Shown: positions 872-26,533 of the stretch, piece by piece | Layout of the letters: every line of letters starts with the position of its first letter | How positions within the stretch are numbered: the stretch's first letter is position 1 | Source of the DNA: a virus | DNA: 26,533 bases | Direction: 5' to 3' (one strand) | IMG/VR virus record: IMGVR_UViG_3300007735_000551 | Span: 1 to 26,533 of that record | Notes under the pieces: generated by a model | What the model was told of the DNA's origin: nothing | Databases searched by the model: none | Seen by the model: only the letters and a program-made list of their open reading frames with translations | Position numbers and translations under genes: made by a program

Positions 872-1588
872 ATGCAATCTCGCATTTATGTTTATAAAAT
901 TACCTTTATTGAAGTTCCGTATTATTACTATGGACTTCATAAAGAAAAGTACTTCAATGAGGAATATTGGGGTTCTCCCGTAACACATAAATGGGTTTGG
1001 AATTTTTATACCCCAGAGAAACAAATACTTCAGTTTTTTGATTTTACTGATGATGGTTGGATAGAAGCACAAGAAATTGAAAGAAGATTAATTAAACCAG
1101 TATACAATAAAGATAAATGGTGTTTGAATGAACATTGTGGTGGTAATTTTTCTTTAAATATCAGAAGAAAAAATGGAGAAAAAATTGCAAAAATACATAA
1201 AGAACTGGAAATAGGATTGTATGGACTCACTACAAGTCAAAGAAAAGAAAATTCTAAGAGAATGGTTGAGCAAAAAAGAGGATGTCATAAATTATCCAAA
1301 GAAGATCGGGTTATTAGGGCAAAAAAACGTGCAAAAATAGATTTGGAAAATAATCGTGGCATTTATCAAAATCTTTCTGAAAATGGGAAAAAAGGTGCTG
1401 AAGTAAATCTAAAAAATGGAACGGGTTTATTTGCTTTCACATCTGAGTATAGGAGTAAAATAACAAAAAAAACTAATTCTCAGAAATGGCATTGCACAGT
1501 AACTGGATATATCACCAATGCTGCAGCATTGTCAAATTATCAAAATCATAGAGGAATAGATACTTCTAATAGAATAAAAATAGAATAA
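872..1588 (+). CDS. Free-standing GIY-YIG-like homing endonuclease
   Basis: A 238-residue protein whose first 100 residues fit the Seg-type GIY-YIG nuclease layout seen in T4-like phages. YVYKITFIEVPYYYYGLHKE replaces the GIY...YIG strands, followed by EEYWGSP, a KQILQFFDF segment, and IEAQEIERRLIKPVYN with the likely catalytic Glu. Residues 120-210 are basic (GRKxG-like stretches), as in DNA-binding linkers, and the C-terminus AALSNYQNHRGIDTSNRIKI looks like a small DNA-recognition helix-turn-helix. Such genes spread by cutting alleles that lack them. Its location between essential genes 21 and 22 is typical of intergenic homing. The canonical GIY triplet is degenerate, so the exact nuclease family is less certain than the homing role. 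Confidence 0.7.
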   Translation: MQSRIYVYKITFIEVPYYYYGLHKEKYFNEEYWGSPVTHKWVWNFYTPEKQILQFFDFTDDGWIEAQEIERRLIKPVYNKDKWCLNEHCGGNFSLNIRRKNGEKIAKIHKELEIGLYGLTTSQRKENSKRMVEQKRGCHKLSKEDRVIRAKKRAKIDLENNRGIYQNLSENGKKGAEVNLKNGTGLFAFTSEYRSKITKKTNSQKWHCTVTGYITNAAALSNYQNHRGIDTSNRIKIE

Positions 1589-5507: not shown

Positions 5508-6491
5508 ATGTCAAATTTGATTATCTCGAAAAAGAATGAGATATATCTTCAGGTTGAGGCAGATCCCCACGTCTATTATGAATTGAGAGATACATTTCAG
5601 TTTGAAGTTCCAAACGCAAAATTTTCACCAGCTTATAAAAATAAGTGGTGGGACGGGAAAATTTATATGTTTAATGTAAATACAAGAGAAATATATGTTG
5701 GACTCTTAGATCGTGTGATTCAGTTTTGCAAGAATCATGATTATACCTATGAGTTCAAGGATAACAAGTTTTATGGTCTTCCTTTTGAAGTCAATCCAGA
5801 CATATCCAGAGAGGGTGTTAAGGACTATGTTACGGCAATTAGTAGGCACACCCCTAGAAATTATCAAATTGCAGGCATCTACGAGGCATTGAGGTACAAC
5901 AGAAAGGTAATTGTGTCTCCTACTGGTAGTGGTAAAAGTCTGATGATTTATGCCATTGCAAGATACTTTCAAAATAAAGATAAAAAAACTCTCATCATTG
6001 TACCTACGACATCACTGGTATCTCAAATGTTTAAGGACTTTGAGGATTATGGTTATGATGCTGAAAATCACTGTCACATGATTTATTCTGGAAGAGAAAA
6101 GGAAAGTGATAAAGAAATTTATATTTCGACTTGGCAGTCATTAGTAAAGTTACCAAAACCTTATTTTCAGAAGTTTGATTGTGTTATATGTGATGAGTGT
6201 TTTTCTGGTGATATGAGGGTATTGACTCCAGATGGTTATGTGAAGATTAAAGATTTAAATGAAGGTGATATTATTATCAACTACGATGAAAATAAAAAAG
6301 AATTTAAAGAAGACACGATATTAAAAACACACAAGAATATCAAAAAAAGTGCAGGAGAAAAAATGTACAGATTAAAATTTGATGACGGAACATCAATAGA
6401 TGTCACAGGGAATCATAAATTTTTAACCGAAGATGGATGGGTTAGAGCAGATATGCTTACGGAAAATCACAATATCATTAATAAATCATAA
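5508..6491 (+). CDS. uvsW: UvsW helicase, N-terminal half fused to an N-intein
   Basis: 327 residues. Residues 1-230 are the N-terminal part of UvsW, the T4 superfamily 2 helicase that unwinds branched DNA and R-loops: a DNA-binding region (NKWWDGKIYMFN), the helicase Q-like stretch HTPRNYQIAGI, Walker A SPTGSGKS at 137-144, TLIIVPTTSLVSQM, and motif II up to VICDE. At residue 231 the helicase stops and an intein begins at Cys1 of CFSGDMRVLTPDG (block A). Block B GTSIDVTGNHKFLTEDGW contains the TxxH motif, and the ORF ends after 97 intein residues. The rest of the helicase is in the ORF at 6636. The reading frame meets several stops after 6491, so this is not a single readthrough. I predict trans-splicing. 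Confidence 0.85.
   Translation: MSNLIISKKNEIYLQVEADPHVYYELRDTFQFEVPNAKFSPAYKNKWWDGKIYMFNVNTREIYVGLLDRVIQFCKNHDYTYEFKDNKFYGLPFEVNPDISREGVKDYVTAISRHTPRNYQIAGIYEALRYNRKVIVSPTGSGKSLMIYAIARYFQNKDKKTLIIVPTTSLVSQMFKDFEDYGYDAENHCHMIYSGREKESDKEIYISTWQSLVKLPKPYFQKFDCVICDECFSGDMRVLTPDGYVKIKDLNEGDIIINYDENKKEFKEDTILKTHKNIKKSAGEKMYRLKFDDGTSIDVTGNHKFLTEDGWVRADMLTENHNIINKS
6198..6488 (+). other. N-terminal half of a split intein (IntN) in UvsW
   Basis: 97 codons from Cys1 (6198) to the stop. Block A is CFSGDMRVLTPDGYVKIKDL followed by NEGDIIINYD; block B has Thr70-Gly-Asn-His73. The length is close to natural IntN pieces of about 100 residues such as cyanobacterial DnaE. It interrupts the helicase DExH box exactly between Glu and Cys, an active-site insertion point typical of inteins. 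Confidence 0.85.
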
Positions 6492-6511
6492 TATCATATT
6501 ATTAAAGCAAA

Positions 6512-6673
6512 ATGTCTCGTAATTATGAAGTTCTTAAAGAAAAATATATTGTTAAATTAAAGACTTACAACAAAACATCCTATATTAAATTTTTAGATTC
6601 TGAATCAGTCATTTTTTCAAATAGTAAAAAATTTTATGAAGTTAACACAAAGAACAGAAATAGACAAACCTGA
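6512..6673 (+). CDS. Small ORF in the gap between the uvsW halves
   Basis: A 53-residue frame starting MSRNYEVLKEKYIVKLK, basic and AT-rich, which overlaps the start of the C-intein ORF in another frame. I recognise no domain. In described fractured genes with split inteins this gap holds a homing endonuclease gene, so this could be the residue of one, or a chance frame that couples translation of the downstream half. No ribosome site is evident. Confidence 0.3.
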   Translation: MSRNYEVLKEKYIVKLKTYNKTSYIKFLDSESVIFSNSKKFYEVNTKNRNRQT

Positions 6674-6740
6674 ATTTGTTTATAATTTAGAAGTAGAAAA
6701 TGATCACAATTACATCGTAGAGGGATGTGTAGTTCACAAC
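6636..6740 (+). other. C-terminal half of a split intein (IntC) in UvsW
   Basis: 35 codons beginning with ATG and ending in Asn at 6738-6740, followed by Cys+1 at 6741. The length matches natural IntC pieces (35-40 residues). Splicing residues His34, Asn35 and Cys+1 are all present, as is the block F aspartate (Asp23). Confidence 0.85.
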
Positions 6741-7517
6741 TGTCATGGTGTAAAGGCGAAAAGTCTTACATCTATTGCTTCAAATCTCAAGGATGCAAAA
6801 TATAGATTTGGGTTTACGGGAACATTAGATGGAATAGAAGTTAATAAACTTGTTCTAGAAGGTTTATTCGGACCTTCATACAAGATTATCAATACTGATG
6901 AACTGATGCAGAAAGGACATCTTTCTCAATTAGATATTCAATGTCTGATTCTCAAGCATCCACCAAAAAGGTTTGAAACCTATGAAGATGAAATTCAATA
7001 TCTGATTTCTCATGAGAAAAGAAACAAATTTATTACTAATCTTACTCTTGACTTAAAGGGAAATACTCTTGTTCTATTCAGTAGAGTAGAATCTCATGGT
7101 GCAATACTTTTTGAACAGATAAATAATAATAAGCAAGGTGACCGTAAAGTTTTCTTTATTCATGGTGGTGTAGATACAGAAGAACGAGAACTTGTAAGAG
7201 AAATTACTGAAAGTGAAAATGATGCAATCATTGTTGCTTCTTACGGCACTTTCTCTACTGGCATTAATATTAAAAATCTACATAACGTTATCTTTGCTTC
7301 TCCTAGTAAATCAAGAATCAGAAATCTCCAATCAATCGGAAGAGTTTTGAGAAAAGGAAAAAATAAAACAAAAGCAGTCTTGTATGATATTTCTGATGAT
7401 TGCACTTATAACTCAAGAAAAAATTATACTCTAAATCATCTCATTGAAAGAATTAAGATTTACTCGGAGGAAAATTTCAACTATGAAATGATAACAATAC
7501 AACTTAATAACAAATAA
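6636..7517 (+). CDS. uvsW: C-intein fused to the C-terminal half of UvsW helicase
   Basis: 293 residues. Residues 1-35 are a C-intein with block F (VYNLEVENDHNYIVEG) and block G ending CVVHN with penultimate His34 and terminal Asn35. Residue 36 is Cys (+1), and CHGVKAKSL continues the helicase DExH box begun in the ORF at 5508. The rest of the helicase follows: RFGFTGTLDG (motif III), NTLVLFSRVESHG, IIVASYGTFSTGINI (motif V) and QSIGRVLRKGKNKT (motif VI with the Arg fingers). Joined exteins give 230 + 258 = 488 residues, close to T4 UvsW (about 500). The only in-frame ATG after the preceding stops is at 6636. There is no clear ribosome site, so coupling to the small upstream frame is possible. 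Confidence 0.85.
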   Translation: MKLTQRTEIDKPEFVYNLEVENDHNYIVEGCVVHNCHGVKAKSLTSIASNLKDAKYRFGFTGTLDGIEVNKLVLEGLFGPSYKIINTDELMQKGHLSQLDIQCLILKHPPKRFETYEDEIQYLISHEKRNKFITNLTLDLKGNTLVLFSRVESHGAILFEQINNNKQGDRKVFFIHGGVDTEERELVREITESENDAIIVASYGTFSTGINIKNLHNVIFASPSKSRIRNLQSIGRVLRKGKNKTKAVLYDISDDCTYNSRKNYTLNHLIERIKIYSEENFNYEMITIQLNNK

Positions 7518-8045: not shown

Positions 8046-8088
8046 TACTACATAATAATGAATAAAATTTATGATAAGCACAGTAGTT

Positions 8089-9519
8089 ATGACGAAGAGA
8101 AAGAGGTCGGAACATTACGTTAATAATAAAGAGTTTCTTGCTGCACTTATTAAGTATCGTGAGGACGTTGAAATTGCTCACCTTCAAGATAAAAAGAAAC
8201 CAGTTATTCCTCGTTATATTGGAGAATGTTTTCTAAAGATTGCAAATCACCTTTCCTTTAAACCAAATTTTGTGAACTATATGTTCAAGGAGGATATGAT
8301 TTCTGACGGTATTGAAAACTGTTTTCATAGATCCACTATCATTCCAACAATTGAATATGGTCCAGTTGAAATTCAATCTATCTTAGGAAAAGAAGTTACT
8401 GTTAGGTGTATTGATGGAAAATGGAGAAAGGCATTTGTTAAATCCTATGGAAAACAGATGCTATATGAATATGGTTTTTCTTCATTTAATGTACCAGTAA
8501 AATGTGTTTCCCAAAAAGTAATTGCAACAGAAAATCATCGTTGGTTCGTCTCTTCAAGACGAAATAATAATAGATGTTTAAATTTTAAAGATGAGGTGGT
8601 AACTGATTTAAGGATTGGAGATTGCCTAAAAAATGCACCTATTGAAAAAATTTATGACAAAAATGCGGTACTTCACGGACTTTTATATGGAGACGGATCA
8701 GGGCACAAATCAGTTGTTTATGGCGATCCTCTGGTTGTAGCACAAGGTAATAAGTATGCAAGAATTAGGGTATGTAAACAAGACGCAGTAAAAGATGAGA
8801 TTATTGATCTTTTAACAGATTTTGGATATGAACCATCGTACCCAAAGCACGCTAATGGAGATCCTTGTTTTTATATTGGAAAATATCCATTAGTTAAAGA
8901 TTTGCCTTTTACTACAGATCCTGAATATATTGCGGGATTTATCTATGGTTGGTGGTTAGCCGATGGGCACAAAACAACATCAACCAATAGATTGCAAATA
9001 AGTACCAGTAATCAATGTGCTGCTGAATGGTTGATTTCTTATGCAGCGTATGCTGGATATCATATTGTTAGTCATAGAGTGGTAGAAAGAAAAGATGGTG
9101 ACGGATCATTCGATAACGGAAAAAACTTAAACGTTATTACTTTAGCTAAACCAGAGCATTATGAACCAAAAGTTAGGTATATTAAAGAATATTGTGAAGA
9201 TGAAGTATTTTGCTTGGAAGAACCGGAAACTAACTCATTCATTCTAGGAAATGGACTACTTACGGGCAATTGTATACAGTATATTCACAATTTCAATCCA
9301 GAGAAATCACAAAACCCATTTGCATATTTTACTCAAATTATTCATTTTGCATTTCTCCGCCGTATTCAAAGAGAAAAGCGTCAGTTAGAAATCAAAAATA
9401 AAATTCTTGAACGATCTGGATACAATGAAGTCTTTACAGATGATAACACTATTGATGGTGGGAACTATTCTGATTTTAACTCAATAAAAGATTCAGTTCA
9501 TAGTAAGACAAGGTATTAA
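8089..9519 (+). CDS. 55: Late sigma factor gp55 interrupted by an intein
   Basis: The precursor starts at MTKRKRSEHYVNNKEFL; an upstream in-frame ATG at 8071 adds six residues and is less like the family. Residue numbers here count from 8071. N-extein residues to 83 end DMISDGIEN, and the C-extein 401-482 begins CIQYIHNFNPEKSQNPFAYF. Joined, these give about 160 residues, near T4 gp55 (185), with the conserved sigma region 2 segment (FLKIANHLSFKPNFVNY, then the NPFAYFTQIIHFAFLRRI helix). gp55 directs host RNA polymerase to TATAAATA promoters, several of which are in this window. The 317-residue intein between Asn83 and Cys401 must be removed for activity because it cuts the promoter-recognition region. 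A sigma70-like promoter precedes the gene. Confidence 0.88.
   Translation: MTKRKRSEHYVNNKEFLAALIKYREDVEIAHLQDKKKPVIPRYIGECFLKIANHLSFKPNFVNYMFKEDMISDGIENCFHRSTIIPTIEYGPVEIQSILGKEVTVRCIDGKWRKAFVKSYGKQMLYEYGFSSFNVPVKCVSQKVIATENHRWFVSSRRNNNRCLNFKDEVVTDLRIGDCLKNAPIEKIYDKNAVLHGLLYGDGSGHKSVVYGDPLVVAQGNKYARIRVCKQDAVKDEIIDLLTDFGYEPSYPKHANGDPCFYIGKYPLVKDLPFTTDPEYIAGFIYGWWLADGHKTTSTNRLQISTSNQCAAEWLISYAAYAGYHIVSHRVVERKDGDGSFDNGKNLNVITLAKPEHYEPKVRYIKEYCEDEVFCLEEPETNSFILGNGLLTGNCIQYIHNFNPEKSQNPFAYFTQIIHFAFLRRIQREKRQLEIKNKILERSGYNEVFTDDNTIDGGNYSDFNSIKDSVHSKTRY
8320..9270 (+). mobile_element. Intein with LAGLIDADG-type homing endonuclease in gp55
   Basis: 317 codons from Cys (8320) to Asn (9268-9270), with Cys as the +1 residue. 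The splicing block B is VIATENHRWFVSS (TxxH). Two LAGLIDADG-like helices, LHGLLYGDGS and IAGFIYGWWLADGH, lie about 85 residues apart and supply the acidic residues Asp208 and Asp298 (precursor numbering). The C-terminal junction is LLTGN followed by Cys, so the usual penultimate His is Gly, and block F carries Ser where His or Asn is common (ETNSFILGNG). It is probably an active homing element, since the frame is intact. Confidence 0.85.
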
Positions 9520-23513: not shown

Positions 23514-23721
23514 AGAGATTGGTGCAGATATTGGAGAACCAGATTGTAAACTGATAAATCCATATATTGTAACTGAATATAAGGAAGGTGAACATACACT
23601 ACAAGCACTTTTACATAAAGTTACGAAGCAAAACACCTTTATGATAAGTTCTGATAAAATCTTAACTCTTGCAGATCCGACTCCTACTCTTCTTGAAAAA
23701 TATGAGGACTTAATTAAATAA
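23461..23721 (+). CDS. Sm-like small protein preceding gp43
   Basis: 86 residues from MIKILLMVNNQILISQIEEI; the frame also has an ATG three codons earlier (23452). Later it reads EPDCKLINPYIV, then LLHKVTKQNTFMISSDKILT and TLLEKYEDLIK. The layout matches small proteins found just upstream of DNA polymerase in T4-like cyanophages. It overlaps the preceding gene by 53 bases, and its stop overlaps the first base of the gp43 start, suggesting tight coupling with the polymerase. Unknown function; a polymerase-associated role is only a guess. Confidence 0.62.
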   Translation: MIKILLMVNNQILISQIEEIGADIGEPDCKLINPYIVTEYKEGEHTLQALLHKVTKQNTFMISSDKILTLADPTPTLLEKYEDLIK

Positions 23722-24992
23722 TGCGTTGGTACACAAATATCCAGTTAATTGGTAATTATTTCTTGGTTCGGGGATATGAGAATGGAGAGCACATTGAATT
23801 TAGAGAAGAATTTAAACCAACTCTTTTTGTAAAAACCAAAAAAGAAAGCAAATACAAAACATTATCTGGTGAAATTGTTGATGCTGTTCAACCGGGAACT
23901 GTGAGAGATTGTCGTGAGTTTATAAAGAAGTATGAGGATGTAGATGGATTTGAAATCTATGGAAATGAGAGATATGTCTATCAATACATCTCAGAGAAGT
24001 ATCCTGAAGAGGAGATTGTGTTTGATATTAACAAAATCAAACTTGTAACCATAGATATTGAGGTTGCATCTGAAAATGGATTCCCTGATGTTGAATCCTG
24101 CTCAGAAGAAATTCTTGCGATTACATTACAAGATTATTCCACAAAGAAGATTGTGAGTTGGGGAGTCAAACCATTTACTCATAATCGTAGTGATTTGATT
24201 TATCACTGTTGTGAATCGGAATTTGCTCTTCTAGATTCCTTCATTCATTATTGGATGAATAATACTCCAGAAATTGTGACTGGATGGAATCTACAACTTT
24301 ATGATATTCCTTATATCTGTAAACGTCTCAATCGTGTTCTTGGTGAAAAGTTGATGAAGAGAATGTCTCTCTGGGGACTTGTGAGTGAAGGTGAGGTCTT
24401 TATTCAAGGGCGTAAACATACGACATTTGATATTGGTGGAGTGACACAACTTGATTATCTGGACCTTTATAAGAAATTTACTTATAAGACACAAGAATCT
24501 TATCGGTTGGATTATATTGCCGAAGTTGAACTTGAACAGAAAAAACTAGATCACTCTGAGTATGAAACCTTCAAAGAGTTTTATACAAAAAACTGGCAGA
24601 AGTTTATTGAGTACAATATTGTTGACACGGAACTTGTTGACCGATTGGAAGACAAGATGAAACTAATTGAACTGGCACTGACAATGGCATTTGATGCCAG
24701 AGTCAATTTTAATGATGTATTCTATCAGGTTCGTATGTGGGACAATATGATTTACAATTACCTGAAGAAAAGAAATATTGTTATTCCTCAAAAAAATCGT
24801 TCTTCCAAGAATGAAAAATATGCCGGTGCTTATGTAAAGGAACCAAAACCTGGAATGTATGATTGGGTGGTAAGTTTTGACTTAACATCCCTCTATCCAT
24901 CTTTAATTATGCAATATTCAATATCACCAGAAACACTTGTGACTAAAGATGATTTGAATATCAGAATTAGAGAATTGGAGAGTATGCTATGA
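23721..24992 (+). CDS. 43: DNA polymerase gp43, N-terminal part
   Basis: 423 residues of the family B replicative polymerase. The N-terminal domain is followed by the 3'-5' exonuclease with Exo I DIE at 112-114, Exo II GWNLQLYDIPY and Exo III EYNIVDTELVDR. Palm motif A, DLTSLYPS, is at 387-394, then MQYSISPETLV. After this the sequence turns into TKDDLNIRIRELESML and ends at TGA 24990. T4 gp43 has about 900 residues; here the fingers, motifs B and C, and the thumb are in a second ORF starting at about 25213. The break follows motif A and is filled by a decayed endonuclease. The gene is either a two-subunit polymerase or spliced; the N-part alone could only act as an exonuclease. Confidence 0.92.
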   Translation: MRWYTNIQLIGNYFLVRGYENGEHIEFREEFKPTLFVKTKKESKYKTLSGEIVDAVQPGTVRDCREFIKKYEDVDGFEIYGNERYVYQYISEKYPEEEIVFDINKIKLVTIDIEVASENGFPDVESCSEEILAITLQDYSTKKIVSWGVKPFTHNRSDLIYHCCESEFALLDSFIHYWMNNTPEIVTGWNLQLYDIPYICKRLNRVLGEKLMKRMSLWGLVSEGEVFIQGRKHTTFDIGGVTQLDYLDLYKKFTYKTQESYRLDYIAEVELEQKKLDHSEYETFKEFYTKNWQKFIEYNIVDTELVDRLEDKMKLIELALTMAFDARVNFNDVFYQVRMWDNMIYNYLKKRNIVIPQKNRSSKNEKYAGAYVKEPKPGMYDWVVSFDLTSLYPSLIMQYSISPETLVTKDDLNIRIRELESML

Positions 24993-25211
24993 AGATGTAG
25001 AATAAGAGATGCTTTTCATGAAACTGCAGATCAACAAAAAATAAATTAGATTTATTGTAAAGCAAAATAATTAACAGAAGAAACAGGTATTTTTTATAAA
25101 GTATATCATATCGTTCCAATTTCAAAAGGAGGAAAGCATCACGAAGACAATTTGCAGATTATTACTATGAATAAAAACCGTAAAAAACATAACAAAATTA
25201 TTGAAAATTAA
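24993..25211 (+). pseudogene. Decayed HNH homing endonuclease inside gene 43
   Basis: Continues in the same frame as the gp43 N-part. After the stop at 24990 come CRIRDAFHETADQQ, stops near 25047 and 25068, and then LTEETGIFYKVYHIVPISKG followed by GKHHEDNLQIITMNKNRKKH. This is the T4-like-phage HNH pattern (LTxETGxxYHVDHIxPxSKGGxHHxDNLQ) with the catalytic DH changed to YH. With at least two internal stops and a lost catalytic residue it should be inactive. Confidence 0.78.
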
Positions 25212-25212
25212 A

Positions 25213-26533
25213 ATGTGGAAAGATATTCGTAAAATGTCCCGTGAGGAAATTGTAAAAGAACTTGAAACACTTAAACGGGTAAAGGAACTTTCTAATAAAG
25301 AAAATGTTAATGAGATTATTAATAAAGAGTTGGATTTAGAACCATTAAAAAAAGTTAATCTCACTATTGCCGCAAATGGATCTCTTTATCGCAGGGTGAA
25401 TGGGTTTTTTCCGGATCTTGTTCAGAAGATTTTTAATGATAGGCAGATTTATAAAAAAAAGATGCTTGCGGCAAAACAAAAATATGAAAAAAATCCAACA
25501 AAGGAATTAGAAAAAGAAATCTCAAGATGTAATAATATTCAAATGGCTAGAAAGGTTCAACTTAACAGTTTGTATGGTGCAATTGGAACACCTTACTTCA
25601 GATATTATAAACTTGAAAATGCCGAGGCAATTACTCTTTCTGGGCAGGTTGCGATTCGTTGGATTGAGACTAAAATGAATCAATATCTTAACAAGATACT
25701 TAAAACAGATAATGTTGATTTGGTTATAGCTTCGGATACGGATAGTTTATATCTCAATATGAGTCCTTTGATTGAAAAGGTATTTGAGAATAGGGATAAA
25801 ACTCCTGAAAAGATAATTTCATTTTTGGATAAGATTTGTAAAAATGATCTTGAAAAATATATTGAAAGTTGTTATGTTGAACTTGCCGAATATGTAAATG
25901 CATATGCTCAAAAAATGCATATGAAGAGAGAATGCATTGCTGATCGTGGAATTTGGACTGCTAAAAAAAGATATATTTTGAATGTTTGGGATAATGAGGG
26001 TGTTCGTTATGAAGAACCCAAACTCAAAATTATGGGTATTGAGGCAGTTAAATCTTCTACTCCAGCACCTTGTCGTCAAATGATTAAGGATGCTCTGAAA
26101 CTGATGATGAGTGGAACGGAGAATGAAGTGATTGCTTATATTGAAAAATGTCGTGAAAGGTTTGAAAAACTCCCACCGGAGCAAATATCCTTTCCGCGTT
26201 CGGCATCAGACGTTCAGAAGTATCAATCTCCAGCAACAATATACTCAAAGGGAACTCCTATTCACGTACGTGGTGCTCTCTTATATAATCATTATGTAAA
26301 GGAAAAAAATCTCTCTCACAAATATTCTATGATTAATAATGGTGAAAAAATTAAATACTGTTATTTAAAAAAACCAAATCCAATTCACGAAAACATTATT
26401 TCCTTTATTCAACAATTCCCAAAGGAACTGGATCTTGACAAATATATAGATTATGATTTACAATTTGAGAAGGCATTTTTAGACCCTCTAAAATCAATTC
26501 TTGATTGTATTGGATGGAAAATTACAAAAACAA
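25213..26533 (+). CDS. 43: DNA polymerase gp43, C-terminal part (runs off the window)
   Basis: At least 440 residues, open to the right edge. It starts MWKDIRKMSREEIVKELETL (alternative start at 25234) with a charged helix not seen in T4 gp43, then ELDLEPLKKVNLTIAANGSL, where the usual polymerase resumes. KKKMLAAKQKYEKNP and ARKVQLNSLYGAIGTPYFRY (motif B, fingers) follow, with motif C SDTDSLY (first Asp at residue 175), KKRYILNVWD and the thumb with FPRSASDVQKY. The start codon comes two bases after the HNH remnant's stop, with no clear ribosome site. All catalytic residues outside motif A are here, so activity needs association with the N-part. The final portion lies beyond the window. Confidence 0.88.
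   Translation, partial: MWKDIRKMSREEIVKELETLKRVKELSNKENVNEIINKELDLEPLKKVNLTIAANGSLYRRVNGFFPDLVQKIFNDRQIYKKKMLAAKQKYEKNPTKELEKEISRCNNIQMARKVQLNSLYGAIGTPYFRYYKLENAEAITLSGQVAIRWIETKMNQYLNKILKTDNVDLVIASDTDSLYLNMSPLIEKVFENRDKTPEKIISFLDKICKNDLEKYIESCYVELAEYVNAYAQKMHMKRECIADRGIWTAKKRYILNVWDNEGVRYEEPKLKIMGIEAVKSSTPAPCRQMIKDALKLMMSGTENEVIAYIEKCRERFEKLPPEQISFPRSASDVQKYQSPATIYSKGTPIHVRGALLYNHYVKEKNLSHKYSMINNGEKIKYCYLKKPNPIHENIISFIQQFPKELDLDKYIDYDLQFEKAFLDPLKSILDCIGWKITKT

What the first reader, a model, noticed from the sequence alone, without database searches (positions are those of the whole stretch)
5508..7517. Natural split intein in the UvsW helicase: a fractured gene predicted to trans-splice
The sequence shows two ORFs. 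The first is helicase residues 1-230 plus 97 residues with intein blocks A and B and Cys1. The second is 35 residues with intein blocks F and G ending His-Asn, then Cys+1 and the rest of the helicase. Joining the exteins restores the DECH box (VICDE + CHGVKAK) and a 488-residue protein of normal UvsW length. Several stops in all linking frames exclude simple readthrough. Piece sizes match natural split inteins such as DnaE and the phage-derived gp41-1 type. Both halves keep their catalytic residues, so neither appears dead. I do not recall a described split intein in UvsW.
Basis: partly seen in the sequence, partly recalled or inferred. Interest (0 to 1): 0.88.

Follow-up and report, generated by a model that had tools for sequence, protein, structure and literature searches.

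The report
Split self-joining helicase gene in phage
In this cyanobacterial-type virus the gene for the UvsW DNA-repair helicase is broken in two, and each piece carries half of a self-splicing protein (a split intein) expected to rejoin the enzyme; the break is the relic of a parasitic endonuclease gene since deleted, and relatives show the same element at stages from parasite-bearing to parasite-free to re-fused.

Summary
Observation confirmed. ORF1 (5508-6491) is UvsW residues 1-230 plus a 97-aa IntN; ORF2 (6636-7517) is a 35-aa IntC plus the rest of UvsW. The exteins join to 488 aa, 352/487 identical to intein-free UvsW of Synechococcus phage S-SRM01, at the DE^CH (motif II) site. All class-1 intein catalytic residues are present, both halves look purifyingly selected, and a read-through model has the Hint fold (Z 18-20 to DnaB, NrdJ-1 and gp41-1 inteins). 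Splicing itself is untested.

The same split intein sits in uvsW of Salmonella S16-like phages, Proteus phage PM2 and many IMG/VR contigs (86 distinct complete loci). Most hold a ~0.9 kb endonuclease gene between the halves: the 'fractured gene' layout of Dassa et al. 2009. The window's 144-bp spacer, with a 53-aa ORF, is the scar of that gene: its first ~40 codons joined to its last few. On the tree the endonuclease was lost about ten times, and two intein copies are contiguous again. So: a new host gene for a known kind of split intein, with an unusually complete record of decay. Whether the 2009 paper already listed UvsW could not be checked.

The parts
5508..6197 (+). N-extein: UvsW residues 1-230 (UvsW_N domain, helicase motif I, up to DE of motif II)
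   Evidence: Pfam UvsW_N and ResIII; alignment to S-SRM01 UvsW
6198..6488 (+). IntN, 97 aa: Cys1, block A, block B TGNH
   Evidence: intein_Nterm above cut-off; Cys1 in 84/84 loci; 67% identical to L021 IntN
6489..6491 (+). TAA stop that separates the two ORFs
6492..6635 (+). 144-bp spacer: scar of the deleted endonuclease gene (5' ~110-130 bp plus last ~12 bp)
   Evidence: DNA alignment to the 911-bp spacer of L021: score 65 against a shuffled maximum of 42; two-ended alignment
6512..6673 (+). 53-aa residual ORF: endonuclease residues 1-~42 fused to its C-terminal codons, overlapping the IntC start
   Evidence: protein alignment to L021 endonuclease residues 1-42: score 104 against a shuffled maximum of 53
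6636..6740 (+). IntC, 35 aa: block F (DHNY), block G ending His-Asn
   Evidence: intein_Cterm above cut-off; alignment A4
6741..7514 (+). C-extein: Cys+1 and UvsW residues 231-488 (rest of motif II, Helicase_C)
   Evidence: Pfam Helicase_C; alignment

Best explanation
A T4-like cyanophage-type virus encodes UvsW as two polypeptides. Each ends or begins with half of a class-1 intein; the halves associate, fold into a Hint domain, and splice in trans (Cys1 N-S shift, transfer to Cys+1, Asn cyclisation) to restore a 488-aa helicase with an intact DECH box. The break arose when a free-standing endonuclease gene lay inside the intein between IntN and IntC (a 'fractured gene'). In this lineage the endonuclease was later removed by an internal deletion of about 770 bp, leaving its first ~40 codons joined to its last few. 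The split stayed because the deletion did not remove the stop codons between the halves, and because loss of either half would break uvsW. Shown: anatomy, homology, scar, selection pattern, predicted fold. Inferred: trans-splicing, and that the spliced enzyme is the working form.
For: Intein domains in both ORFs. Joined exteins match intact UvsW. Cys1 84/84, intein-terminal Asn 84/84, and CH after the junction in every row except one matched inside a truncated segment. dN/dS window against L021: IntN 0.14, IntC 0.08. Read-through model: mean pLDDT 83.5, about 90 or more in most of IntN and IntC; Z 19.7 NpuDnaB, 19.2 NrdJ-1, 18.0-18.3 gp41-1 and NpuDnaE. Endonuclease-bearing relatives L021, L002, L004 (S16), L005 (PM2). 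Scar alignment. Tree: window is sister to the endonuclease-bearing L021 with support 98. A textbook recent deletion in a relative, L205 against L151: flanks 96-99% identical, 905 bp missing.
Against: No splicing data. The window is a single contig and no second contig carries its exact junction, so an assembly error at the scar is not formally excluded, although there are no repeats there and analogous deletions recur in independent samples. The window IntC start has no clear Shine-Dalgarno sequence.
Confidence: 0.88

Rival explanations
1. The intein is dead and uvsW is a pseudogene or works as two unspliced pieces (genes in pieces, as recorded for phage ribonucleotide reductase).
For: Splicing was not tested; two-piece enzymes without splicing exist (a ribonucleotide reductase split by an endonuclease, cited in PMC10448857).
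Against: All splice residues intact and low dN/dS in both intein halves; the break lies inside helicase motif II between E and C/H, so unspliced pieces would have a broken Walker B motif; the same residues are kept in 84 loci.
Confidence: 0.06
2. The split is a sequencing or assembly artefact of a normal contiguous mini-intein or of an endonuclease-bearing locus.
For: One contig only for the window; exact junction not found elsewhere in IMG/VR.
Against: Three stops between the ORFs; spacer is recognisably endonuclease sequence at both ends; the close relatives L021 and L160 also have the halves, or the endonuclease end and IntC, in separate ORFs; isolated phages S16, SEA1 and PM2 are split too.
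Confidence: 0.04
3. The spacer is removed at RNA level (group I intron) or bypassed in translation, so the intein splices in cis.
For: Both ORFs are in the same frame; phage genes can carry introns.
Against: No Rfam match anywhere in the window; three stops; the spacer is endonuclease scar; in other loci the halves lie in different frames and up to 1.4 kb apart.
Confidence: 0.02

Closest known systems
Fractured genes with split inteins and a free-standing endonuclease (Dassa et al. 2009, NAR 37:2560; e.g. gp41-1, NrdJ-1, IMPDH-1)
   Same: Conserved phage DNA-metabolism gene broken inside an intein at the usual endonuclease insertion point; IntN ~97 aa, IntC ~35 aa; relatives carry an endonuclease gene in the gap; same Hint fold
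   Different: Host gene is UvsW (motif II site); in the window the endonuclease is deleted to a scar. The 2009 paper is not held, so whether UvsW was among its host genes is unchecked
AceL NrdHF split intein (PMC7891396)
   Same: Fractured-gene layout, 98-aa IntN, intervening endonuclease gene
   Different: Class 3 mechanism, 48-aa IntC, GIY-YIG endonuclease, other host gene
Cyanobacterial DnaE split inteins (Npu, Ssp)
   Same: Split at about the same position of the Hint fold, no endonuclease, class 1
   Different: DnaE halves are at distant loci; here the halves are 144 bp apart and the scar is still readable; sequence similarity is weak
uvsW of Salmonella phage S16 (HQ331142 gp114, gp114.1, gp115) and Proteus phage PM2
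   Same: Homologous split intein at the same site (IntN 58-61% identical)
   Different: Still carry the endonuclease gene; deposited as helicase plus hypothetical protein without mention of an intein

Membership tests
Class 1 split intein | Two separate ORFs, each one intein half fused to one extein half | tested here: met
Class 1 split intein | Cys/Ser at position 1; block B TxxH; block F His; terminal (His-)Asn; Cys/Ser/Thr +1 | tested here: met
   Cys1, TGNH, DHNY, HN, Cys+1 in window; conserved in 84 loci
Class 1 split intein | Exteins join to a continuous conserved host protein | tested here: met
   488 aa, 352/487 identical to S-SRM01 UvsW, no gap at the junction
Class 1 split intein | Hint fold from IntN plus IntC | tested here: met
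   Read-through model pLDDT 83.5; 91 PDB chains at Z>=8, top rows nearly all inteins
Class 1 split intein | Ligation of the exteins in trans | not testable with these tools
   needs co-expression
Fractured gene (Dassa type) | Endonuclease gene between the intein halves | tested here: not met
   Window has only a 53-aa remnant; relatives L021, L002, S16 and PM2 have the gene. The window is therefore a derivative of that kind
Vsr/EDxHD homing endonuclease family (for the relatives' endonuclease) | Vsr-like catalytic fold | tested here: inconclusive
   NUMOD3 motif; model of the L021 protein best matches TnsA (Z 8.0), then Vsr (6.0) and I-Bth0305I (5.6), all near or below the noise level given for that tool

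The most novel reading that the evidence does not exclude
The UvsW split intein is a natural record of the reverse path of gene fracture: after an endonuclease splits an intein, the endonuclease is repeatedly deleted (about ten times, window included) while trans-splicing persists; in at least one lineage (L126 and identical contigs from five samples) a ~900-bp deletion re-fused the halves into a cis-splicing intein whose linker is read from the endonuclease 3' end in another frame; in another (L166 group) unrelated small genes now sit between the halves, a step toward unlinked split genes.
Probability: 0.7. Interest if true: 0.65.

Novelty: new member of a known kind. Interest (0 to 1): 0.55.

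Why it matters
It adds a recombination/repair helicase, split in its catalytic motif, to the genes that use trans-splicing, and shows the element is common in T4-like phages rather than a curiosity. The set of loci (endonuclease present, decayed, gone, halves re-fused, or other genes inserted) makes the birth, persistence and reversal of split inteins directly testable with near-identical natural pairs. It also offers many small (97+35 aa) split inteins for protein ligation. Annotators currently call the pieces 'helicase' and 'hypothetical protein'.

Tried and rejected
Readthrough or frameshift joining: rejected, three in-frame stops. Group I intron in the spacer: no Rfam match. Plain-linker reading of the 144 bp: rejected by its match to the endonuclease start. 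Endonuclease as a Vsr-type enzyme by sequence: no Pfam Vsr hit, only NUMOD3 and a weak TnsA-like hit; fold search ambiguous. First combined IntN/IntC alignment (A5) misplaced IntN rows and was discarded in favour of A7. Search for a second copy of the exact window junction and splice-site DNA: none. Literature: no held paper contains both 'split intein' and 'UvsW'; Dassa 2009 and Carvajal-Vallejos 2012 not held. Ancestral contiguous intein: L139 is contiguous without an endonuclease footprint, but nests among split loci, so it was not taken as ancestral.

Full report
What is there. The window is a 26.5-kb virus record whose nearest annotated relatives are T4-like Synechococcus phages such as S-SRM01. 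ORF1 5508-6491 and ORF2 6636-7517 are the two halves of uvsW, each with half an intein. NCBIfam's intein N-terminal and C-terminal models both exceed their curated cut-offs, in ORF1 and ORF2 respectively. Removing IntN (6198-6488), the stop, the spacer and IntC (6636-6740) leaves 230 + 258 = 488 residues that align without a gap at the junction to the intact UvsW of S-SRM01, 352/487 identical; the insertion point is between Glu and Cys of the DECH box, where the intein-free phage has DEAH. The two ORFs share a frame but three stops lie between them.

Is it a working split intein? The catalytic set (Cys1, TGNH, DHNY, His-Asn, Cys+1) is complete. Across related loci Cys1 and the terminal Asn are invariant (84/84), and the junction is followed by CH in every row except one matched inside a truncated segment. 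Between the window and its nearest complete relative L021, dN/dS is 0.14 for IntN and 0.08 for IntC, similar to the C-extein (0.17), so both halves appear to be under selection; synonymous sites are near saturation, so these are rough. A model of the window sequence read through its stops (181 aa) has high confidence in both intein parts and low in the spacer and matches DnaB (Z 19.7, 1.9 A, 135 aligned), NrdJ-1 (19.2), NpuDnaE (18.3) and gp41-1 (18.0-18.3) inteins. Splicing itself is inference.

Where the break came from. Searching with IntN found L001 and L002, in which IntN is followed by a separate endonuclease-like ORF; in L002 IntC follows it, while L001 is cut off by the contig end. The ORF has NUMOD3 motifs; a model of the L021 copy has a PD-(D/E)XK-like C-terminal domain most like TnsA, then Vsr and I-Bth0305I, at modest Z. 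The same arrangement is in isolated phages: Salmonella S16, SEA1 and others, and Proteus PM2, deposited as helicase / hypothetical protein / helicase. This is the 'fractured gene' organisation attributed to Dassa et al. 2009, as used for AceL NrdHF in PMC7891396. PHROGs already has separate families for the N half and the C half, both called DNA helicase.

The window's spacer is a scar. Its 53-aa ORF (6512-6673) aligns with residues 1-42 of the L021 endonuclease at score 104 (shuffled maximum 53), and the DNA at 65 (shuffled maximum 42). Its last bases (AAAAAATTTTATGAAG) match the end of the endonuclease gene, which overlaps the IntC start codon. About 770 bp in between are missing relative to L021.

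The wider series. Four IMG/VR protein scans plus the phage records gave 86 distinct complete loci: 64 with a 0.7-1.0 kb gap and 5 with more than 1 kb, 3 with a partial endonuclease, 12 with a gap under 200 bp, of which one (L097) is an in-frame IntN-endonuclease fusion and one (L171) has only a truncated IntN match, and 2 contiguous. On a tree of exteins plus intein, the 10 endonuclease-less split rows fall in 10 separate places (at least 7 forced by well-supported branches), the partial ones in 2 and the contiguous ones in 2; the window pairs with endonuclease-bearing L021 at 98. Pairs show the events directly: L205 against L151 (flanks 96-99% identical, 905 bp gone), L112 against L093 (901 bp), L126 against L111 (899 bp, which re-fuses the intein; the new linker is endonuclease 3' DNA in another frame). 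The L126 sequence is identical in contigs from five samples. In L166 and four others the gap holds small unrelated ORFs instead of an endonuclease, and L166 uvsW has a second, contiguous intein near motif I. In L071/L072 the intein halves are far less diverged at synonymous sites than the exteins (0.17-0.18 against 0.87-0.93), as expected if the element moves horizontally. Several deletions keep 20-35 bp before the IntC start, some with a Shine-Dalgarno-like AGGA or AAGG; this was not statistically tested.

Verdict. The new points are its origin as an endonuclease-deleted fractured gene, its wide and unrecognised distribution, and the recurrent loss and re-fusion. Caveats: no splicing assay; the window is one contig; the key 2009 paper could not be read, so novelty of the UvsW host gene rests on a search of held papers only.

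Noticed in passing
window 8320-9270 within ORF 8071-9519: Late sigma factor gp55 carries a contiguous ~317-aa intein (Cys1 ... GN|C) with a weak LAGLIDADG match; removing it restores the S-SRM01 sigma factor.
   Followed up: partly
window 24960-25211, between ORFs 23721-24992 and 25201-26532: DNA polymerase gp43 is broken in two after residue ~407; the gap holds an HNH-endonuclease-like remnant (YHIVPISKGGKHHEDNLQIITMNKNRKKHNK) with stops. No intein and no Rfam intron; possibly a polymerase in pieces.
   Followed up: partly
window 872-1588: ORF between prohead genes that looks like a free-standing GIY-YIG endonuclease by eye (YVYKITF...YYYGLHK); no Pfam, PHROG or NCBIfam match.
   Followed up: no
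L166 2782-4000 (also L190, L207, L229, L230): Between the uvsW split-intein halves lie small non-endonuclease ORFs, one His-rich, in place of the endonuclease; L166 uvsW also has a second contiguous intein near the Walker A motif.
   Followed up: partly
L097 (same contig as L067): IntN is fused in frame to the endonuclease (ORF ~419 aa beyond Cys1), with IntC still separate.
   Followed up: no
L139 4007-4408: Contiguous uvsW mini-intein with no endonuclease footprint, nested among split loci: an older re-fusion, or recombination with a contiguous allele.
   Followed up: partly
L004 1176-1811 (Salmonella phage S16): A second annotated homing endonuclease gene (gp113) lies directly upstream of the split uvsW, near where T4 has segE.
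   Followed up: no
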